From: Bacteroidia bacterium
GTDB lineage: Bacteria; Bacteroidota; Bacteroidia; Bacteroidales; JAPLDU01
Direction: 5' to 3'
Assembly: GCA_026391255.1 (NCBI GenBank)
Contig: JAPLDU010000088.1
Coordinates: forward strand, 1 to 35,110
Length of the DNA stretch: 35,110 nt
Shown: positions 2,618-20,444 of the stretch, in pieces
How the letters are laid out: every line of letters starts with the position of its first letter
Position numbering within the stretch: the first letter of the stretch is position 1
The notes under the pieces: model-generated
Told to the model about the DNA's origin: nothing
Seen by the model: the letters and a program-made list of their open reading frames with translations, nothing else
Databases searched by the model: none
Position numbers and translations under genes: made by a program

Positions 2618-4069
2618 TTATTGTTTTATTCTTCTCATCAGAAATAAACCGGCAAAAGTCAGGGCGCCATTCAGGATCAGCAATTCGAATCCGAATTTAT
2701 AACCACCGAACCATTGGGATGAATAATCGCTGATAATATAGCAGATGATGGGTGAAAGCACCGCTACCCATGGCACAAACCTGTCCTTTACTTCAAATTT
2801 TGTAAACAGGCCGAATGAAAAAAGACCGAGCAATGGTCCGTATGTGTAACCTGCAACAGTGAACAATTTATCAATCACAGCCCGGTCGTTGATGGCACGG
2901 AACATAATGATGATAAGCAAAAGCAATACAGCAAAGCAAATATGCACAATGTAGCGTATCCTGGTTTTTGTTTGTTCTGAAAGATGATTTTTTTCCTTGA
3001 GGCCAAGAAAGTCTATACAGAAAGACGTAGTGAGAGCAGTTAACGCACCGTCAGCGCTTGGGTAGGCGGCAGATATCAGGCCGATCATGAAAACCAATCC
3101 GGCCAGGGGCCCAAGGTAACGCAAAGCAATGACAGGGAACAGATCGTCAGAGCGTGCAGGCATTTCCATCCCTTTCTGTGAGGCGAATATATACAGGACA
3201 GCCCCAAGCATAAGGAACATCAGGTTAACCAGCACTAATACGAAACTGAAAGTGAACATATTTTTTTTTGCATTCTTCAGCGAACTGCAGCTCAGGTTTT
3301 TCTGCATCATTTCCTGGTCAAGACCTGTCATGGCAATGGTAATGAATATCCCGCTCAGGAATTGTTTGAGATAGAAACGCTTATCATGCCAGTCGCTGTT
3401 AATTACGTTTGAATAATGGCTGTGAAAAATCCTCGAAATGATCCCTGGTATGGTTAATTTTAATTCGTGTGTAATAAATACTACCGACAAAATAACTGCA
3501 AGGAGCATAAAGGTGGTTTGAAGTGTATCTGTCCAGATTATGGTTTTAATCCCGCCTTTAAAGGTGTAGAGGATGATCAGCAGAATAAAAACGGCTACGG
3601 TAATACCGAAAGGAATGCCCCATGCATCAAAAATAAAAATCTGCAGGACATTAGCCACCAGGAACATCCGGAATGATGCCCCGATGGAACGCGATACCAG
3701 GAAAAAGAATGCACCTGTTTTATATGACCAGAAACCAAAACGCTGTTGAAGGTAGGTATAGATTGAAGTGAGGTTAAGCCTGTAATACAAAGGCATCAGC
3801 ACCATTGCAATAGTGAAATAACCGAACAGGTAACCCAATACAACCATCATGTAGCTGAATTGTGTATCACCCACCCACCCGGGTACCGACATAAAAGTGA
3901 CCCCGGATAATGAAGCGCCAATCATCCCATAAGCAACTATGTACCAGGGAGATTGCTTATTCCCGATATAAAATGATTCACTGTTGGCCCGTCTCGCAGT
4001 TATCCAGGTAACAAGAAAAAGAATACCCGTATATGCAATAAAACAGGCAAGAAGCAATAATGGTGTCAT
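2618..4069 (-). CDS. Sodium:solute symporter (SSS family)
   Basis: A 483-residue polytopic protein with about 13 hydrophobic segments, the layout of the SSS family, which imports a solute together with Na+ across the inner membrane. Supporting features are the early segment YIGNKQSPWYIVAYGMIGAS with its Ser/Gly-rich stretch (SGVTFMSVPGW), the YTFKGGIKTIIWTD loop and a helix with SAAYPSADGALTALTTS, all typical of Bacteroidota members. The substrate cannot be told from sequence. The frame can be extended to a TTG at 4123, but that extension (MCKITSK) runs across the TAATTTTG box of the divergent recR promoter and is not hydrophobic, so ATG 4069, which opens directly with MTPLLLLACF, is the better start. 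It is transcribed away from recR. Confidence 0.88.
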   Translation of the reverse strand: MTPLLLLACFIAYTGILFLVTWITARRANSESFYIGNKQSPWYIVAYGMIGASLSGVTFMSVPGWVGDTQFSYMMVVLGYLFGYFTIAMVLMPLYYRLNLTSIYTYLQQRFGFWSYKTGAFFFLVSRSIGASFRMFLVANVLQIFIFDAWGIPFGITVAVFILLIILYTFKGGIKTIIWTDTLQTTFMLLAVILSVVFITHELKLTIPGIISRIFHSHYSNVINSDWHDKRFYLKQFLSGIFITIAMTGLDQEMMQKNLSCSSLKNAKKNMFTFSFVLVLVNLMFLMLGAVLYIFASQKGMEMPARSDDLFPVIALRYLGPLAGLVFMIGLISAAYPSADGALTALTTSFCIDFLGLKEKNHLSEQTKTRIRYIVHICFAVLLLLIIIMFRAINDRAVIDKLFTVAGYTYGPLLGLFSFGLFTKFEVKDRFVPWVAVLSPIICYIISDYSSQWFGGYKFGFELLILNGALTFAGLFLMRRIKQ

Positions 4070-11757: not shown

Positions 11758-12001
11758 AATATTTAATTTTGATATAATAATTAAAAATAGGAATTTGTTC
11801 AAAATGCATTTCCTGATTAGATTAAATATTGACCAATTTTAGCAGTTACCATTTACCTGACTATTCAATTCAGTTTGACTGATTATTTTCATAATAATCA
11901 TTCTTGAACATGACAATCAGGAAGCAGATAGTCTGAGATTTACCGGTTAGAAGTAAATAATAAGATAATTATTTTTTCACGGAAAACTTAAATTTTTGAT
12001 T

Positions 12002-15000
12002 ATGAAAAAAATGGTATTATTCTTCAAAAAAATGAATTGTCTGTTACTTGCATTCATTGTAATCAGTATAATTCAGTGCACATCTTTAAGTTCATCGGCG
12101 CAGGTATGGTGCACCACAGGCCTGTATCAGAACGGTTGCTCATGGGGCGGAATTGTCGGTTTTCATCTCAGCGACATTAATCTTACTGGACATCAATGCT
12201 CCGGTTCAAATGATCTGACTGATATGACCACAACCACAGGTACTCTTGCAGAGGGTGAGACCTATTATTTTTCTATAACCACCAATTCAAGTTATTCATA
12301 TGGTGATTACGTAGCGATCTGGATTGATCTGAATAACAATGGTGATTTTGATGAAGCAGGAGAATTGCTGTTCAGTTCATCGACAGGCGGACAACTTTCG
12401 GGTTTTTTCACCATGCCGGCAGGAATTGATACCGGAATGTTCCGGTTACGTTTACGAACTGCCAGGTGGACGGTTATAACAAATACGGACGCCTGTTCGA
12501 ATTACTGGCAGGGAGAAGCTCAGGATTATACCGCTCATATTGTTGCCGCGCCTGCATGTCCCGGGATTTCCGGGGTTTCAGTTTCCAACATTACTCACCA
12601 CACCGCTGATATCAATTGCGAATGTAGCGGTTGCAGCGGTCCTTTCATCATTGAATATGGGTTGCAGGGATTTGTTCCCGGAACAGATCTATTGCCCGGA
12701 ACAGGAGGCACAGTAAATATTGTCCCGGATCTGTCATCATTTCCATATACACTGACTGGATTATCAGCTTCCTCAGATTACGAGGTTTATATCCGCAGGA
12801 ACTGCAATGAGGCAGGATTCAGCACAAACCTGGGTCCGGTAGGGTTTTCATCAGTCTGGGATGCATGTTCAACGCTTACAGCCATTAATTGCGGTGAACC
12901 TGTCGATTATCAGGTGAGTCCTGGTTACGGGGAATATAATTCGACAAATTGTTCATCGTCTGCTGGTAAGGAAAGAATTTATGAATTCATTCCCCAGGTT
13001 ACCGGAAATTATACCCTTTCCATTCTTACAGGAGTTGATTATTCTCACAACATTATATATTCGTACAAGCCTGCTTCCCTCGGCTGCAATGATTCATCCT
13101 GGATTTGTCTTGATAATTGGGTGGGAATGCACCTGATAGGTACACTGTCTGCAGGTGTACCATACCTGTTCTTACTGGATGAAAATAATACTACCGGTAC
13201 TGAACAGCAATTCCAGATAGATTGCTATGTTCCTTATTATCCCTGCTCGACCATCACCCAGATTAACTGCAGCGAACCTGTTCAGGCTACCATTCCACCC
13301 GGCGTGGGAGCCTACAGCACCAGTTGCGATTTTAATAATACCAACCCCGGCAAAGAAATTATTTACCGGTTTACCCCAACGATAACGGGAATGTATACTC
13401 TGACGGTTATTAACTGCGACTACTCTGCTGAATATAGTTACAAAGAAGTATCTTCCGGATGTGACCAGGGAGGCTGGTTTTGCATTAACTCAGTTTCCTG
13501 GAATAACAATATTATTTTATTACTCGGTACATTAATAGCAAATACAAGCTATTATATCATGCTTGATGCCGGTACGCTTTACGGTGCCAATCATCTTTTC
13601 CAGATTAACTGTGCTGATCTGCAAAACCCCTGTGATTCCATGATTTCAGCTGAATGTGAAACTCCTTTTATTCTGAATATTCCACCCGGAATTGGTCATT
13701 ACTATAATGCTCCTTGTGGTTTCAATGATCCTCCTGTCGGGAAAGAAAAAATAATTCAATATACACCGCAGACTTCAGGTATTGCAGGTATAAATGTAAG
13801 TTATAACGGGTACGGTCTTGATGGTGCACAGTTTTTATACAAGGAAGCTTCGGCAGGATGTGGTCCGGATGGATGGACATGCATAGGTGAATCGGGTGGA
13901 GATCCCTGGCTGCAATTCCCTTCCGCCCTGGCGGCAGGAACTGCCTATTATATCCTGGTTGATGCAGTCGGCTATGCCGGTTCAAGCTTCACCCTCGTCA
14001 TTTCCTGCCCCGAAAACTGGGATCCTTGCCAAACCATCGCTCCAATATCCTGCTCGGTGCCCGTCACTGCTGATATTCCACCCGGTTACGGCGCCTATAA
14101 CATGGTTAACGAAAATAATCAAAACAATTCCTTCGGAAAGGAACTGATCTATTCATTCTCTCCTGATTATTCGGGTTCTGTTCAGATTGATATTTTAAGC
14201 ACTGATTATAACTGGATAAAATATTACATTAAAGATGCCTCTTCAGGCTGTAATGATTTAGGCTGGTATTTAATTGACAACGACGGATACCCGACTGATG
14301 ATTATCCGTATTATTCCCCTATCGTGTTTCAGGCAGGCCATACCTATTATCTTTTGTTAGATGCCGATGAACTTAATGGCGCTGTTCATACATTTGAGAT
14401 TACCTGCCCTGATTCAGAATATGATCCTTGTGCATCAATCCCACAGGTCAATTGCGGGGATACAGTTCAGGTCAATCTTCCGCAGGGACTCGGAGTATTC
14501 AGTTCCCCTTCAAACGGATCGGGAGGTTATGATAACATGGCCGGGAAAGAAGAATTGTTTGAATTTATTCCTGAAATAACAGGGGTCTATATGCTGAATG
14601 TTACTCCCTCCGTAGATTGGGATCCCACCAGTTATTTCTTTAAAGAAGCTTCGACAGGTTGCAATGATAATGGTTGGACCTTCATTACCAATGATTATTG
14701 GGTTGCAGGTACATTTACAGGGCAATTGCTTGCAGGAACGCCATATTATATTAAGATTGACAAATTTTGGACCGGTTCATTATCAGAAAGTTTTGAGATC
14801 ATCTGTCCTTCAGAGGCATATGACCCTTGTGCAAATATCGTACAAATTGCCGATACAGGAGTGGAAGTTACAACCACCCATGCTCCGGGATTGGGCGCTT
14901 TCGGGCTCAATGGATGTGGAAATGAAGAAACAGGTAAAGAAAATATCTTTGAGTTTGCTCCGTCATTTTCAGGAAATTTTTCAATTTCTTCCTCCGGTAA

Positions 15001-17167
15001 TTACGGTGGAGATGTGTATTATTATATAAAGCCGGCTTCCTTAGGATGTAATAGCGGAGGCTGGCAATGTTTTGGCATGGAACAATTCTTTTCAGCAGGT
15101 ACTAGTTATTACATCCTTGCCGCTCCATATGATATATCCGGAGCGGAACAGGTATTTACAATCAATTACCTTGGTATACCTCCTGATCCCTGTGAAAATA
15201 TTACCACGATTACTAATTGCGGATATAATCATATGATGCCCATTAATATTCCGCAGGGATATGCACTGTTATCCCATCCTGCCTGCCAGCAATATCCGTC
15301 ATTTGCCATTGGCCGGGAACAACTCTTCTCATTTACTCCAAATCTTACCACTGATTATAGTATACAAACCTGGGGGTTAAACAATTACGTTAATTTTTAT
15401 ATTAAAAACGCTTCATCAGGTTGTAACGGGAATGACTGGATATGCCTGTATGCGGACTATCCGTATTATGATCCCATCGATTTTCCATTTCCACTGGTTG
15501 CCGGTAATACTTATTATATCATGGCCGCATCAGGATACTATTGGGGTATAAGCGGTAATTGCGGATTCTATATTACTTGTCCGTCGGGTTGTGTTCAATA
15601 TCATGATAATGATGGTGATGGTTACGGCAATCCAAATGAGTTAATGCATATATGCTATCCTGTGTATGGCTATGTCCATAATGGGTTGGATTGCAACGAC
15701 AATGATCCTGCCATCCATCCCGGAGCGCCGGAAATAATTGATGGTACTGATAATAATTGCAACGGCCTGATTGATGAACCCTGCACTCCGGCAGTTCTTG
15801 TTTCTGTCACCGGGGATAATGTTGTCTGTTATAATTGTGCCAATGGTTCATTGCAGGCCATGGTAAATAGCGGTACTGCTCCATATCAGTTCCTGTGGTC
15901 GGACGGATCAACCACCCAGGCAATCAGCGGCCTGGCAGCCGGGACATATGATGTTACCATAACAAGCGCCAATGGCTGTACCGCAACAGCATCCTTTACC
16001 ATAACCAGCCTTGATTTACAGATAATCAACCTTTTGTCCGGCTGGAACATTTATTCGACTTATATTAATCCTGTGGTTGCGAATATCAGTTCTGTATTGG
16101 CTCCTGTGATCGGCAATGTCATCATTGTGAAAGACGAAAACGGCCAGACCTTCTGGCCTCAGTACAATGTGAATAATATAGGAAACCTGATCACCGGCAA
16201 AGGCTATCAGTTTAAAATGAGCAGCAATGTACAACTCACCATAAATGGAACAGCACTTGTTCCGGAGAACACACCTCTTTACCTGCATTCAGGCTGGGGT
16301 CTGATGGGCTACCTGAGGCAGTCGCCGGCATCTGTGGTTCAATTGTTGTCGGGTATAGCCGGTAATATCATTATTATGAAAGACGGAGGCGGCCATGTAT
16401 ACTGGCCTCAGTACAATTATAACAGCATTGGTAACCTGATACCGGGTCTTGGCTACCAGCTAAAAATGAGTAATCCCGTTATACTGGAATTCCCTGCAAA
16501 TTCAGCGAATCTTGAAAAGTGTTCATCTTTGGTAGCTTGTCCCCGTCACTTTATTCTCAATATAAATACAGGAAATAACATGACACTGGGAATTTTCCGT
16601 CAGTTAATGGGGATTGATAAGCCGGCATCAGATGTGGAAATAGGAGTGTATGACCAGGAAGGTCTGCTTGTCGGTTCAGGGGTTCTTAAATCAGGTTTTA
16701 ATGCTATCACTCTGTGGGGCGATGATGTGATGACACCTTACAAAGATGGATTAACCGAAGGGGAAGCATTCAGCCTGATCATGTGGAATCCTGCAACCGG
16801 GGAAGAAACTCCGCTGGTTGTTGAAAAATGGCAGGAAGGCAGCGGCAATTATTCGGTAAATGGCATCAGCGTTGCTGCAATACATAATCCGGCAGACCAC
16901 GAACAACAGGCAATTCTTTATCAGAATAACCCCAACCCGTTTAACCAGTCTACTGAAATCAGGTTTTTCCTTCCTGAAAAGACATTTGCAGAAGTGTATG
17001 TTTGTAATGTTCTGGGGGAAAAGATTGAAGTTTTACTTTCTGAGGAAAAGCCTGCAGGTGAAAACTCAGTTCAGTTCAGCACAAAAAATTATTCTGCAGG
17101 AATATATTTTTATAAGTTAGAAACACCGGGAGCCACCATCAGCCGTGTGATGGAGATCATCAGGTAA
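12002..17167 (+). CDS. Giant T9SS-secreted multidomain surface protein with seven repeats
   Basis: A 1721-residue exported protein. ATG 12002 (MKKMVLFF) is preferred to the TTG six bases upstream. In order: signal peptide; a GEVED-like domain (IWIDLNNNGDFDEAGELLF, about residues 70-180); a fibronectin III-like stretch (to about 285); seven modules of ~130 residues (about 286-1196), each opening like DPCASI..NCG.PV, then IPPGxGAY, GKExIYEFTP, a YKxASxGCNxxGW core and LxAGTxYYI; a MopE-like Asp/Asn-rich calcium-type segment (DNDGDGYGN, DCNDNDPAIHPGA, DGTDNNCNGLIDE, about 1197-1261); a SprB repeat (GTAPYQFLWSDG, about 1263-1337); two ~80-residue copies with LLSGWNIYS / LHSGWGLMGY and FWPQYN / YWPQYN; and a type A sorting domain (NNPNPFNQSTEIRF ... 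AGIYFYKLE) at the end. Such proteins are displayed or released via the Por system; likely an adhesin or matrix protein, with no catalytic domain seen. Confidence 0.88.
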   Translation: MKKMVLFFKKMNCLLLAFIVISIIQCTSLSSSAQVWCTTGLYQNGCSWGGIVGFHLSDINLTGHQCSGSNDLTDMTTTTGTLAEGETYYFSITTNSSYSYGDYVAIWIDLNNNGDFDEAGELLFSSSTGGQLSGFFTMPAGIDTGMFRLRLRTARWTVITNTDACSNYWQGEAQDYTAHIVAAPACPGISGVSVSNITHHTADINCECSGCSGPFIIEYGLQGFVPGTDLLPGTGGTVNIVPDLSSFPYTLTGLSASSDYEVYIRRNCNEAGFSTNLGPVGFSSVWDACSTLTAINCGEPVDYQVSPGYGEYNSTNCSSSAGKERIYEFIPQVTGNYTLSILTGVDYSHNIIYSYKPASLGCNDSSWICLDNWVGMHLIGTLSAGVPYLFLLDENNTTGTEQQFQIDCYVPYYPCSTITQINCSEPVQATIPPGVGAYSTSCDFNNTNPGKEIIYRFTPTITGMYTLTVINCDYSAEYSYKEVSSGCDQGGWFCINSVSWNNNIILLLGTLIANTSYYIMLDAGTLYGANHLFQINCADLQNPCDSMISAECETPFILNIPPGIGHYYNAPCGFNDPPVGKEKIIQYTPQTSGIAGINVSYNGYGLDGAQFLYKEASAGCGPDGWTCIGESGGDPWLQFPSALAAGTAYYILVDAVGYAGSSFTLVISCPENWDPCQTIAPISCSVPVTADIPPGYGAYNMVNENNQNNSFGKELIYSFSPDYSGSVQIDILSTDYNWIKYYIKDASSGCNDLGWYLIDNDGYPTDDYPYYSPIVFQAGHTYYLLLDADELNGAVHTFEITCPDSEYDPCASIPQVNCGDTVQVNLPQGLGVFSSPSNGSGGYDNMAGKEELFEFIPEITGVYMLNVTPSVDWDPTSYFFKEASTGCNDNGWTFITNDYWVAGTFTGQLLAGTPYYIKIDKFWTGSLSESFEIICPSEAYDPCANIVQIADTGVEVTTTHAPGLGAFGLNGCGNEETGKENIFEFAPSFSGNFSISSSGNYGGDVYYYIKPASLGCNSGGWQCFGMEQFFSAGTSYYILAAPYDISGAEQVFTINYLGIPPDPCENITTITNCGYNHMMPINIPQGYALLSHPACQQYPSFAIGREQLFSFTPNLTTDYSIQTWGLNNYVNFYIKNASSGCNGNDWICLYADYPYYDPIDFPFPLVAGNTYYIMAASGYYWGISGNCGFYITCPSGCVQYHDNDGDGYGNPNELMHICYPVYGYVHNGLDCNDNDPAIHPGAPEIIDGTDNNCNGLIDEPCTPAVLVSVTGDNVVCYNCANGSLQAMVNSGTAPYQFLWSDGSTTQAISGLAAGTYDVTITSANGCTATASFTITSLDLQIINLLSGWNIYSTYINPVVANISSVLAPVIGNVIIVKDENGQTFWPQYNVNNIGNLITGKGYQFKMSSNVQLTINGTALVPENTPLYLHSGWGLMGYLRQSPASVVQLLSGIAGNIIIMKDGGGHVYWPQYNYNSIGNLIPGLGYQLKMSNPVILEFPANSANLEKCSSLVACPRHFILNINTGNNMTLGIFRQLMGIDKPASDVEIGVYDQEGLLVGSGVLKSGFNAITLWGDDVMTPYKDGLTEGEAFSLIMWNPATGEETPLVVEKWQEGSGNYSVNGISVAAIHNPADHEQQAILYQNNPNPFNQSTEIRFFLPEKTFAEVYVCNVLGEKIEVLLSEEKPAGENSVQFSTKNYSAGIYFYKLETPGATISRVMEIIR

Positions 17168-17446: not shown

Positions 17447-18211
17447 ATGATTAATCTCACCGATTATTTAATAATTATACTTGCCGCAATGTCTGCAGGC
17501 TTCGTGAATGCACTGGCCGGAGGAGGTACTCTCATCTCGTTTCCGGTGCTTACGGCGATAGGAATTCCGCCGGTTGCGGCTAACATTACCAATACGATTG
17601 CCCTTTGTCCGGGTTATTTTGGCGGAAGCCTTGCACAGCGCCGTGATCTGAAAGGCCAGGGAAGACGGCTTTGGCTCGTGATCCCTGCAGGAATAACGGG
17701 TGGACTGCTGGGTGGATATATCCTTCTTAAGACGGGTGAAAAAACGTTTAAAGAAGTGATTCCATTTCTTATCCTTATGGCATCAGGACTTCTGGCGCTT
17801 CAGGAACCTTTGCGGAAATATTTTATCCGGCATAAAACACAATCCATTGCAGGGAGAGGAAAAGAAATGTGGATAATACTGCCTGTCTGCCTGGCAGCAA
17901 TCTATGGCGGATATTTCGGCGCCGGCTTAGGCGTAATCCTGCTCGCAATAATGGGACTGATTATCAGCGACACCCTGACCCGCATCAATGCGTTAAAACA
18001 GATTGTTTCCCTGTTTACGAATGTTGCGGCTGCTGTGTTCTTTCTTTTTTCCGGCATGGTAGTGTGGCCGGTTGCAATTGTAATGGCAGCAGGAGCCCTG
18101 GCAGGTGGTTCGCTGGGTGGACGATTGGCCGGCAAAATCAACCCTGTTTACCTGAGATGGATTGTTGTCTCGATAGGTGTAGTGGTGGGAGTGATTTACT
18201 TAGTCGGATAG
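17447..18211 (+). CDS. TauE/SafE family sulfite/organic-anion exporter
   Basis: A 254-residue polytopic membrane protein with about seven to eight hydrophobic segments. It shows the two half-repeats of the TauE/SafE family: FVNALAGGGTLISFPVLTAIG with PPVAANITNTIALCPGYFGG in the first half, and YGGYFGAGLGVILLAIMGL with RINALKQIVSLFTN in the second. Family members export sulfite, sulfoacetate and related anions or have unknown substrates; the substrate here cannot be told. The ATG lies six bases after interspersed repeat copy B, and no other genes appear to be co-transcribed. Confidence 0.88.
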   Translation: MINLTDYLIIILAAMSAGFVNALAGGGTLISFPVLTAIGIPPVAANITNTIALCPGYFGGSLAQRRDLKGQGRRLWLVIPAGITGGLLGGYILLKTGEKTFKEVIPFLILMASGLLALQEPLRKYFIRHKTQSIAGRGKEMWIILPVCLAAIYGGYFGAGLGVILLAIMGLIISDTLTRINALKQIVSLFTNVAAAVFFLFSGMVVWPVAIVMAAGALAGGSLGGRLAGKINPVYLRWIVVSIGVVVGVIYLVG

Positions 18212-18308: not shown

Positions 18309-18532
18309 ATGGAAATTAAAACTGACATATATCTTGGTGACAGCAAAGAACAATTGAAACTACTTCCTGATAATTTGGTGGATTTAATAGTGACTTCCCC
18401 ACCTTATGCAGATCAACGTAAGAATACTTATGGTGGTATTCACCCTGATGAGTATGTTAAATGGTTTTTGCCTATTTCCGAGCAACTTTTAAGAGTTCTT
18501 AAACCAACTCAAACGTAATATTTGTATTATGA
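18309..18532 (+). pseudogene. Internally deleted N4/N6 DNA methyltransferase
   Basis: The readable frame gives 69 residues (18309-18518), the start of a beta-class type II DNA methyltransferase: IYLGDSKEQLKLLPDNLVDL, the catalytic TSPPY at residues 29-33, YGGIHPDEYVKWFLPI and LLRVLKPT, after which intact enzymes continue with a GTFxLN strand and another ~200 residues including the AdoMet-binding FxGxG motif. Here the frame stops at TAA. In another frame, TCA AAC GTA ATA TTT GTA TTA TGA (18509-18532) ends in a TGA that overlaps the ATG of the HNH gene as ATGA. I infer that this is the original 3' end of the methyltransferase, and that the body was lost by a deletion near 18507-18512. The fragment cannot methylate DNA. 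Confidence 0.75.
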
Positions 18533-19455
18533 GTTACGAAGGGAAGATGCTTAAGGATTTGAAAATGCCTACTAGAAAAGAAGTTGAAGAAGCATTATTA
18601 AAATCTCTTTTTTACAATAACGGTATCATTAAAGAGTTTGGCGCAGGTGAAGAAATTGTAGATGAAATTGCAAATGAGTTTAATCTTAATAAAGAACAAA
18701 GAAATATATATTTAGAAACCATTTATAAAAAAGAGAATCGTTTAAAAAAATCATCATTATGGCATCGCTTATTGTTTAGGGCTGCTGACAATCTTGCAAA
18801 AGAAAAACTTGTTTCAAGACCATCTTTAACATTTATTATAACAAATAAAAAAGAATGGATGCTAACTGAAGACGGCTATGATAAAGCTTTGAAATTATTA
18901 AGTATACCAAATAATGAAAAAGAGATTTTACCGGTGAAATCGTATGAAGTCCAAAGAATTGTCAAGAAAATCAACGATCAAGAAATACCGTCTGAATATA
19001 ATCCAATCGAACCAAATAAAATCTATACCGTATCAAAGGAAGCTAAGCTAAGAAAAAGAGGTTTCAGATTTGCAATAGTTGAAGCTTACAAATATCAATG
19101 TGCTATTTGTGGATTGAAACTGTTTTCTCCTAATAATCTTCAATGGGAAGTTCAAGCAGCTCACATCGTTCCACATAGTTTAAATGGGAAAGATGATATA
19201 TGGAACGGTTTAGCACTATGTCGTTTGCATCATTGGACTTTTGATGTTGGATGGTTTAGTTTAGAAGATAATTTTCATGTAATTGCTTCAAATAAAATTC
19301 ATTCAATAGATAATATCTATGGAATACGGGGTACTTATAATTTTTTTGAGCATATTTCAAACGAAAAACTATTTTTATTACTCCCTGACAATCAGCATCA
19401 TCATCCCCACATAACCGCTATTAAATGGCATAGAGAAAATATTTTTTGCAAGTAA
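18529..19455 (+). CDS. HNH restriction endonuclease
   Basis: A 308-residue nuclease. The N-terminal ~90 residues (MPTRKEVEEALLKSLFYNNG, DEIANEFNL, WHRLLFRAADNLAKEKLV) look like the winged-helix Mrr_N-type DNA-binding domain found in many restriction enzymes. The C-terminal half holds an HNH domain with a zinc pair C191-x2-C194, the AHIVPH motif at 211-216, Asn in IWNGLALC near 226, C231 and H234/H235. All key residues seem intact, so it is probably active. It begins by an ATGA overlap with the methyltransferase remnant, as expected for translational coupling in a restriction-modification operon. The region is visibly more AT-rich than its neighbours, suggesting horizontal acquisition. With its partner methylase broken, host DNA must be protected otherwise, or the target is modified or foreign DNA. 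Confidence 0.85.
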   Translation: MSYEGKMLKDLKMPTRKEVEEALLKSLFYNNGIIKEFGAGEEIVDEIANEFNLNKEQRNIYLETIYKKENRLKKSSLWHRLLFRAADNLAKEKLVSRPSLTFIITNKKEWMLTEDGYDKALKLLSIPNNEKEILPVKSYEVQRIVKKINDQEIPSEYNPIEPNKIYTVSKEAKLRKRGFRFAIVEAYKYQCAICGLKLFSPNNLQWEVQAAHIVPHSLNGKDDIWNGLALCRLHHWTFDVGWFSLEDNFHVIASNKIHSIDNIYGIRGTYNFFEHISNEKLFLLLPDNQHHHPHITAIKWHRENIFCK

Positions 19456-19468
19456 AATATTTAGGAAA

Positions 19469-19645
19469 ATGAATGAAGAAATAATCTATTTACTAAACAA
19501 AGCAGATATTCAAACTGTCGCACTTGAAGAATTAAATAGGAAGCTGACGAATAAAGAAATTGAGAGTATTATAGAAAAAATTGCTGAAAAGATTAATTGG
19601 TATGATTGTATAGCAAATGCCATAAATGAAAATATTGTAGAATAA
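19469..19645 (+). CDS. Small hypothetical protein (58 aa) in the restriction island
   Basis: A short gene beginning ATG AAT GAA GAA, 13 bases after the HNH stop codon and preceded by an AGGA at 19463-19466. The 58-residue product (start MNEEIIYLLNKADIQTVALE, end CIANAINENIVE) is acidic and predicted largely helical, with a central TNKEIESIIEKIAEKINWYD segment that may form a helical hairpin. No signal peptide or membrane segment is seen. Base composition matches the HNH gene. It may be a regulator, an inhibitor of the nuclease or a passenger; I do not recognise the family. Confidence 0.6.
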   Translation: MNEEIIYLLNKADIQTVALEELNRKLTNKEIESIIEKIAEKINWYDCIANAINENIVE

Positions 19646-19958: not shown

Positions 19959-20444
19959 ATGAATAAAAAAGACCAACCCGTTTTGTCTTCAAATGTTTTC
20001 CGTGCCGGGGCAGGCGCCATTATCATAAATGAGCAGGGACAGGTGCTGGCTTTTGAGCGTCTCAATATTCCCGGTTCATGGCAGATGCCGCAGGGTGGGC
20101 TGGATGAAGGGGAAGAACCAATGCAGGCGGTTTTGAGAGAGGTGGAAGAAGAAACGGGTCTGCAACCACAGGATATCAGTCTCATCGCAGAGTACCCGGA
20201 CTGGCTGGCATATGAACTTCCTGTCCCACAACGAAGCCGCAAACATGGCAGGGGACAGGTGCAAAAATGGTTTATATTCAGATTAACAGGTTCAGAAAAT
20301 CAAATTATTCCACAGGCGGTAAGTAATCCTGAATTCAGAGCGTGGAAATGGTTGGAAATGAAAACCCTGATTTCTGAAACCGCTCCTTTTCGCCGCTGCG
20401 TATATGAAAAGCTGGAAATATATTTCAGAGAATTTCTTTATTAG
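19959..20444 (+). CDS. rppH: RNA pyrophosphohydrolase-like Nudix hydrolase
   Basis: A 161-residue Nudix protein of RppH/NudH length. The Nudix box spans residues 46-68 with the pattern G-x5-E-x7-REV-x-EE-x-GL complete. The surrounding PGSWQMPQGGLDEGE and the later KHGRGQVQKWFIFRLTG and FRAWKWLEM match RppH rather than general Nudix enzymes. RppH trims the 5' triphosphate of mRNAs to start their decay; the same fold also acts on diadenosine polyphosphates, which cannot be excluded. It lies alone on the plus strand, converging with the U32 gene across a heptamer array. Confidence 0.85.
   Translation: MNKKDQPVLSSNVFRAGAGAIIINEQGQVLAFERLNIPGSWQMPQGGLDEGEEPMQAVLREVEEETGLQPQDISLIAEYPDWLAYELPVPQRSRKHGRGQVQKWFIFRLTGSENQIIPQAVSNPEFRAWKWLEMKTLISETAPFRRCVYEKLEIYFREFLY

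What the first reader, a model, noticed from the sequence alone, without database searches (positions are those of the whole stretch)
18309..19455. Restriction-modification locus with methylase deleted but HNH nuclease intact
The methyltransferase keeps its TSPPY motif and then breaks off at LKPT, while an alternative frame preserves a plausible original stop (TGA at 18530-18532) overlapping the nuclease start as ATGA. This reads as an internal deletion in the methylase with the downstream operon junction saved. Loss of the methylase while a complete nuclease remains is normally lethal, so the nuclease is inactive or unexpressed, the host carries another protecting methylase, or the enzyme has become modification-dependent or anti-phage in its own right.
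Basis: partly seen in the sequence, partly recalled or inferred. Interest (0 to 1): 0.6.

Follow-up and report, generated by a model that had tools for sequence, protein, structure and literature searches.

The report
Nuclease cassette replacing a restriction-modification operon
The broken methylase is what remains of a restriction-modification operon that was overwritten by a small cassette carrying a nuclease resembling enzymes that attack modified DNA, and the same replacement is seen again and again in unrelated bacteria.

Summary
In detail: a 69-residue N-terminal methyltransferase (M) fragment, then an intact 308-residue HNH gene. The reading changes. Near-full-length relatives of this M sit with another nuclease, R (EcoO109I family): R lay beside 39 of 47 such loci, HNH beside none. 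HNH plus a 58-residue ORF forms a cassette replacing the M/R junction. Of 76 cassette loci with upstream sequence, 39 keep an N-terminal M fragment, never complete; 32 of 75 keep R sequence downstream. M breakpoints run from codon 26 to about 254. One cassette locus matches an intact M-R operon at 92-93% DNA identity except that 112 bp at the M/R overlap became 1,391 bp of cassette. Truncated Ms are not one clade (the window's fragment was too short for that tree), so replacement recurred. HNH is predicted to be a winged helix plus an HNH domain nearest TagI and VcaM4I, which are modification-dependent. Best explanation: a DpnI-like enzyme attacking DNA with M's mark (probably N4-methylcytosine), entering M+R+ cells only where one event breaks both genes. 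Cleavage is untested; two bins with intact M elsewhere, and a few loci with a readable R but no M, argue against it.

The parts
18309..18518 (+). N-terminal remnant (69 aa, TSPPY motif) of a PF01555 DNA methyltransferase (M), cut after codon ~69 of ~292
   Evidence: nearest near-complete M 87% identical over the fragment
18516..18528 (+). junction between M remnant and cassette; no hairpin leader here, unlike several Bacteroidota relatives (by eye)
18529..19455 (+). 308-aa winged-helix + HNH nuclease gene, intact
18535..18918 (+). predicted N-terminal winged-helix part (model residues ~3-130)
   Evidence: AlphaFold2 model, mean pLDDT 90.6; winged-helix matches with VIA Z up to 8.0; Mrr_N in 3 and HTH_45 in 1 of 68 members
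19045..19452 (+). HNH nuclease domain (residues ~173-308)
   Evidence: TagI VIA Z 13.6, VcaM4I Z 11.6; 34% identity to the HNH part of HHPV4I in a profile comparison
19469..19645 (+). 58-aa ORF conserved directly downstream of HNH; predicted three-helix bundle; function unknown
   Evidence: similar ORF in 58 of 75 loci; 60 ORFs extracted, 57 aligned; model

Best explanation
Shown: a cassette (winged-helix-HNH nuclease, in most loci with a ~60-aa ORF) has repeatedly replaced the junction of M-R operons made of a PF01555 methyltransferase and an EcoO109I-family restriction enzyme, breaking M and usually R. The window is one such locus: M is cut at codon 69 and R is gone. Inferred: the nuclease is modification-dependent, a DpnI-like counterpart of the system it displaced. 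It cuts DNA carrying M's mark, probably N4-methylcytosine, so it restricts phages or plasmids coming from M-R hosts and cannot coexist with active M. A cell with active M and R survives acquisition only if M and R are lost together. M and R overlap or abut, so a cassette landing across their junction does both in one step; M and R sequences carried with the cassette could serve as homology arms. Afterwards the useless remnants erode, in some loci to nothing. The role of the small ORF is not known.
For: (1) 39 of 76 loci have an M remnant directly upstream, all sense, all starting at residue 1-10; 32 of 75 have R downstream, all sense. With M and R swapped between the flanks the search found 1 distant MTase (L062) and 1 inverted R (L053). 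(2) No M remnant is complete. Of 48 other M loci, 47 have M in one piece of at least 240 aa; of these 39 have R and 0 have HNH within the ~1.5 kb held. (3) L057 against the intact operon L152: 92% DNA identity up to the junction, 93% after it, 112 bp exchanged for 1,391 bp. (4) L080 and L147, two contigs of one bin, share a flanking gene; one has M and R, the other M fragment-HNH-R. (5) Truncated Ms are not one clade (20 against 26 rows, AU p 1e-90; 12 changes, at least 5 forced by well-supported branches). (6) L057's M is 99% identical to L152's but 91% to L050's, although L050 and L057 HNH are 94% identical; synonymous difference L050/L057 is 0.27 in HNH, 0.61 in M. (7) HNH is under purifying selection (dN/dS 0.05-0.21 in the nine of ten pairs with usable dS). 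(8) Foldseek's three matches with E <= 0.001 are TagI and two VcaM4I chains, both modification-dependent. (9) M's closest solved relative is the N4-cytosine methyltransferase M.PvuII (E 4.5e-34). (10) In Desulfonema magnum, with M and R elsewhere, the HNH gene is interrupted by what look like two insertions. (11) In one family sample of 294 genomes four have a full-length HNH, all four in an M remnant, none with an intact M; a fifth has a partial match only.
Against: No cleavage or methylation data exist. Two bins, G403 and G437, have an intact HNH gene and intact M on other contigs (MAGs, so mixing is possible). Intact M in the 80 cassette genomes (4 of 80: G403, G437, G441, G469) is not rarer than in one family sample (about 10 of 294), so genome-wide avoidance is not shown. 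Six loci keep an R that reads as a long ORF from near its N-terminus (L042, L076, L080, L081, L095; L092 from about residue 18); the both-must-break argument does not predict this unless M is present in trans, and an intact M was found in only 3 of those 6 bins, one of them as a strain variant of the same locus. 29 of 68 loci with both flanks show neither remnant. HNH itself is damaged or partial in 11 of 83 loci. The winged helix has only generic matches (Z up to 8), and reading of N4mC by such a domain is not established. Synonymous distances depend on how pairs are chosen: with pairs picked by low HNH distance HNH is below M in 60 of 61; picked by low M distance, in 7 of 18, many near saturation. 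The window's own fragment was too short for the tree.
Confidence: 0.55

Rival explanations
1. Free-standing homing endonuclease: HNH cuts intact M-R alleles at the M/R junction, and repair from a cassette-bearing copy inserts the cassette. Its spread is selfish and M/R damage is a by-product.
For: Recurrent insertion at one site of one operon family; the cassette removes the junction that would be its target; L080's R looks chimeric: its downstream part is 85% identical to the neighbouring allele while the upstream part does not align at DNA level, as after recombination.
Against: Homing elements normally spare their host gene (recalled); here M is broken in 39 of 39. The best fold matches are modification-dependent restriction enzymes. 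29 of 68 loci with both flanks show no M or R. No divergent donor tract is seen beside the L057 junctions.
Confidence: 0.2
2. Two-gene defence or toxin-antitoxin-like module (HNH nuclease restrained by the small ORF) with its own target, which profits from landing behind M's promoter and start; the mark made by M is irrelevant.
For: The small ORF accompanies HNH in 58 of 75 loci; both show dN/dS below 0.4; M's start region is what persists in the shortest remnants.
Against: Does not explain why, wherever a remnant is recognised, it is this one M-R family, nor why M is never spared.
Confidence: 0.17
3. One reading: HNH is the restriction enzyme of this methylase, and the methylase suffered an internal deletion.
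For: M fragment directly upstream of an intact nuclease.
Against: 47 near-complete M loci of the family show R (39) and never HNH; R remnants lie on the far side of the cassette.
Confidence: 0.04

Closest known systems
DpnI / DpnII alternative systems of Streptococcus pneumoniae (PMC3573125, found passages read)
   Same: Two alternative systems, one restricting methylated and one unmethylated DNA; the dpnI locus holds dpnC (the nuclease) and dpnD. Occupation of the same chromosomal site is recalled, not read.
   Different: Here the replaced operon leaves M and R stubs; the nuclease domain is HNH, not PD-(D/E)XK; the exchange recurs in many phyla; the mark is probably N4mC, not 6mA in GATC.
[quoted passage not shown] HHPV4I/HhiV4I, HtuIII (PMC11037411: abstract, sections 14 and 17, found passages)
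   Same: Winged helix joined to a related HNH domain (hhalign E 1.3e-34 over residues ~159-304). That paper also reports adjacent 4mC or 6mA MTases inactivated by frameshift, for PD-(D/E)XK-wH enzymes.
   Different: Only the HNH part aligned with HHPV4I and two relatives; the winged helix did not. 308 aa against 224-283 aa for its wH-HNH enzymes. Replacement of an M-R junction is not described in the parts read.
TagI (SRA-HNH, domain name recalled) and VcaM4I (EVE-HNH, PMC7897488, search listing) modification-dependent endonucleases
   Same: Same HNH fold (Z 13.6 and 11.6).
   Different: Different reader domain.
SBD-HNH phosphorothioate-dependent enzymes (NF045808; SBD recalled)
   Same: HNH half matches (92 bits, residues 138-306).
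   Different: Below the family cut-off (180 bits); no match to the first 122 positions of the family model.

Membership tests
Modification-dependent (type IV) winged-helix-HNH endonuclease | HNH nuclease domain with conserved catalytic residues | tested here: met
   PF13391 in 68 of 68 members; invariant C/H/N residues; TagI Z 13.6
Modification-dependent (type IV) winged-helix-HNH endonuclease | N-terminal winged-helix reader domain | tested here: inconclusive
   Winged-helix fold predicted, but Z up to 8 is within the common range and the domain did not align with HHPV4I and two relatives
Modification-dependent (type IV) winged-helix-HNH endonuclease | Stand-alone: no active cognate methyltransferase beside it | tested here: met
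   0 of 39 adjacent M remnants complete; one distant MTase (35% identity) lies downstream in L062; other MTase families beside the cassette were not searched for
Modification-dependent (type IV) winged-helix-HNH endonuclease | Cleaves only modified DNA | not testable with these tools
   needs protein and modified substrate
Type II R-M restriction enzyme paired with this M | Intact cognate methyltransferase in the same locus | tested here: not met
   0 of 39; HNH beside 0 of 47 near-complete Ms
DpnI/DpnII-type alternative cassettes | Alternative occupant of the same locus | tested here: met
   L057/L152, same operon; L080/L147, same flanking gene
DpnI/DpnII-type alternative cassettes | Mutual exclusion of active M and active methyl-dependent nuclease in one genome | tested here: inconclusive
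   Intact M in 4 of 80 cassette genomes; one has a broken HNH, one is a strain variant of the locus, two are unexplained
Free-standing homing endonuclease | Insertion without loss of host-gene function | tested here: not met
   M broken in 39 of 39
EcoO109I-family R-M system (the displaced operon) | PF14511 REase next to its MTase | tested here: met
   For the family: PF14511 E 5.1e-93, R beside 39 of 47 near-complete Ms. In the window itself no R remnant at E <= 1

The most novel reading that the evidence does not exclude
A restriction enzyme specific for N4-methylcytosine spreads by overwriting exactly the R-M operons that make its target mark: the resident system's own lethality forces the cassette into the M/R junction, so R-M stubs in many phyla record repeated replacement of one immune system by its opposite.
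Probability: 0.3. Interest if true: 0.82.

Novelty: new variant of a known kind. Interest (0 to 1): 0.65.

Why it matters
If right, methylase stubs beside an intact nuclease are not decayed R-M systems but scars of one immune system displacing another. It would offer a candidate N4mC-dependent nuclease (a useful reagent), a natural case of conflict between restriction systems caught in many stages, and a general way to find modification-dependent enzymes: look for nucleases sitting in wrecked methylase genes.

Tried and rejected
The 'saved junction' ATGA was rejected as a by-product of the Met-Ser start. One ancient insertion followed by co-inheritance was rejected by the M tree and the L057/L152 pair. 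The hairpin leader seen by eye upstream of HNH in several Bacteroidota loci looked like an integron attC site; in L046 it matches Rfam Flavo-1 (RF01705, minus strand), the other five loci scanned gave no such match at the gathering score, and a motif from it occurs 0-6 times per genome in six genomes, so it was not taken as part of the mechanism. No matching ends or target duplication were noticed by eye at the L057 junctions; no systematic test was made. Viral contigs: 46 pattern matches, none a relative. Phages and plasmids gave HNH matches, none covering 80% of the query (at E limits 1e-15 and 1e-8). Only 1 of 59 relatives of the window's genome has the neighbouring TauE-like gene at E <= 1e-40, and its locus was not examined further, so no empty site of the window itself was found. 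The small ORF's fold gave no significant match; Pfam and NCBIfam gave only weak ones. VIA-align listed no methylation-reading winged helix among its 50 rows; that absence is not evidence. The dN/dS line for R at the end was computed in a wrong frame and is not used. Four literature searches showed no description of this replacement in the titles and abstract openings listed; only two papers were opened.

Full report
What is there. The window (G000 contig C155; taxonomy not named by the tools, Bacteroidota-like by its relatives) carries, between a TauE-like permease gene (17447-18211) and a NUDIX hydrolase gene (19959-20444) (both named from their translations, without a family search), a 69-aa fragment of a DNA methyltransferase M (18309-18518), an intact 308-aa HNH gene (18529-19455) and a 58-aa ORF (19469-19645). 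The fragment matches positions 1-47 of 221 of PF01555. The HNH protein matches PF13391 and, in its second half only, the phosphorothioate-dependent enzyme family NF045808 below that family's cut-off.

How general it is. A sample of 395 genomes of the phylum gave five other full-length relatives (47-56% identity), one of which (L003) also has M cut, at a different codon. A scan of GTDB species genomes found 91 relatives and kept the best 80 loci; record titles name Bacteroidetes, Ignavibacteriae, Chloroflexi, Nitrospinota, Neomarinimicrobiota, Deltaproteobacteria, Leptospiraceae, Zixibacteria, WOR-3, Nitrospirae, Verrucomicrobia, Planctomycetota and others. With the window, L002 and L003 the set is 83 loci; L004, L005 and L006 were dropped as copies of L094, L095 and L097, judged from equal contig lengths. 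The HNH frame is clean in 69 of 83, cut by a contig edge in 3, and damaged or partial in 11. No relatives were found in viral contigs; no phage or plasmid hit covers 80% of the query.

Anatomy. Of 76 loci with at least 300 bp upstream, 39 have M sequence there at E <= 0.01, all on the same strand, all starting at residue 1-10 and ending between residue 26 and about 254 of 292. L046 is listed to residue 290, but its frame leaves M near codon 252 and runs into a hairpin; L100 and L052 also carry frameshifts. Of the 39, 34 stand beside a clean HNH frame. Of 75 loci with at least 600 bp downstream, 32 have R sequence, all same-strand, and it runs to R's C-terminus except where a contig ends. Of 68 loci with both flanks, 23 have M and R, 10 M only, 6 R only, 29 neither. 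The small ORF is found in 58 of 75. R is an EcoO109I-family restriction enzyme (PF14511, E 5.1e-93); M's nearest solved relative is the N4-cytosine methyltransferase M.PvuII. So the cassette lies between an N-terminal piece of M and a piece of R. As a control, 48 other M loci were checked; 47 have M in one piece of at least 240 aa (L133, L156, L160 and L165 of these carry stops), and of the 47, 39 have R (at least 180 aa) and none has HNH in the ~1.5 kb held on either side; some of those without R end near a contig edge.

In-place replacement. L057's M piece is 99% identical in protein to that of an intact operon, L152. Their DNA is 92% identical up to the junction and 93% after it; 112 bp of L152 spanning the end of M and the start of R are replaced by 1,391 bp (hairpin leader, HNH, small ORF) in L057. 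L080 and L147, two contigs of one bin, share a flanking gene and differ in the same way: L147 has M and R, L080 has an M fragment, HNH and an R whose downstream part is 85% identical to L147 while its upstream part does not align at DNA level. This suggests recombination between alleles. In one family sample of 294 genomes the full-length HNH occurs in four, all four in an M remnant (a fifth genome has a partial match).

Recurrence. A tree was built of 46 M sequences: 20 of 36 HNH-linked rows (15 under 100 residues, the window's among them, and frame-split L100 left out) and 26 of 49 others (near-copies and one split row left out). The HNH-linked Ms need 12 changes, at least 5 forced by well-supported branches; holding them as one clade is rejected (AU p 1e-90; 17 of 43 inner branches are drawn open). 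L050 and L057 HNH are 94% identical, while L057's M is closer to L152 (99%) than to L050's (91%). The proportion of synonymous difference is 0.27 in HNH and 0.61 in M for that pair; dS is 0.33 in HNH, 1.25 in M and 1.13 in R. Over all pairs with HNH proportion under 0.6 it is smaller than M's in 60 of 61 and smaller than R's in 41 of 41, while M is below R in 21 of 41; seven disjoint pairs all agree. Selecting by low M distance instead gives 7 of 18, so the wide count is partly selection and saturation; the three closest pairs (L047/L056, L060/L066, L050/L057) have HNH below M under both choices. Low dN/dS in the M pieces (0.04-0.13 in four pairs) suggests that they diverged mostly as working genes and were broken recently.

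What the nuclease is. The model from 68 sequences (mean pLDDT 90.6) has a winged-helix part (about 3-130) and an HNH part (about 173-308). Foldseek's three matches with E <= 0.001 are TagI and two chains of VcaM4I; EcoKMcrA (0.007) and ScoMcrA (0.055) follow, the latter level with unrelated ribosomal chains. VIA-align gives TagI Z 13.6 and VcaM4I 11.6, and for the winged helix many generic regulators at Z 8 or less. Mrr_N matches 3 and HTH_45 one of 68 members. The HNH part aligns with HHPV4I and two relatives; HHPV4I is reported as an m6A-dependent enzyme from an archaeal virus (PMC10101028, search listing with title and start of abstract). PMC11037411 reports winged-helix fusions as N6mA-dependent type IV enzymes and, for PD-(D/E)XK-wH enzymes, adjacent 4mC or 6mA methylases inactivated by frameshift (abstract, sections 14 and 17 and found passages read). 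HNH is under purifying selection.

Mechanism. Shown: recurrent replacement of the M/R junction, and an incomplete M at every locus where M is found. R loses its start or more in most loci that keep it: of 13 loci where R reaches its first ~11 residues, 7 have lost the start or are broken or cut. Inferred: HNH attacks DNA carrying M's mark. A cell with active M would then be killed by HNH, and a cell that lost only M would be killed by R, so the survivors are those in which one event breaks both; the M/R junction is where that can happen. Remnants then erode. In Desulfonema magnum, with M and R elsewhere in a complete genome, the HNH gene is interrupted by what look like two insertions, as the model expects.

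Against it. Bins G403 and G437 have an intact HNH gene and intact M on separate contigs, with R complete beside M in L144 and L146 and cut by the contig end in L145. Six loci keep an R that reads as a long ORF: L042, L076, L080 and L081 from the expected start, L095 with a different N-terminus, L092 from about residue 18. An intact M was found elsewhere in the bin for 3 of these 6 and for 1 of the other 74 genomes (Fisher p 0.0009; without G441, the strain-variant case, 2 of 6 against 1 of 74, p 0.014). So where R may still work, M is more often present, but HNH is then beside an active M, which the model does not explain, and for L081, L092 and L095 no intact M was found. The first five loci considered are scattered on the HNH tree (5 changes for 5 rows). 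Genome-wide avoidance of M is not shown. Cleavage, mark and sequence are untested.

Verdict. It is a new variant of a known kind (DpnI-like and winged-helix type IV enzymes), with an unusual, repeatedly visible mode of replacement.

Noticed in passing
L046 5870-5959 (- strand): The hairpin leader between M stub and HNH matches the Flavo-1 RNA family (RF01705, E 1.9e-10); by eye, similar sequence lies at the same place in L039, L048, L049, L057, L066, L079 and L100.
   Followed up: partly
L108 6001-7328: Desulfonema magnum HNH gene interrupted by what look like two inserts of roughly two hundred bases or more, perhaps short mobile elements.
   Followed up: partly
L042, L076, L080, L081, L092, L095: HNH loci with an R that still reads as a long ORF; in the first five the small ORF was not detected and R's first ~70 residues diverge while the rest is better conserved.
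   Followed up: partly
L053 about 3026-3591 (- strand): An inverted, frameshifted R remnant lies upstream of HNH, the only inverted one seen.
   Followed up: no
L062 downstream of HNH: A distant PF01555-like methyltransferase (about 35% identity, open frame of 356 aa) starts roughly 240 bp after HNH.
   Followed up: no
L064 and L077, upstream of HNH: Another family of small proteins directly upstream of very short M stubs.
   Followed up: no
window 11996-17167: A 1,723-aa ORF with internal repeats that looks like a secreted protein; no search was made.
   Followed up: no
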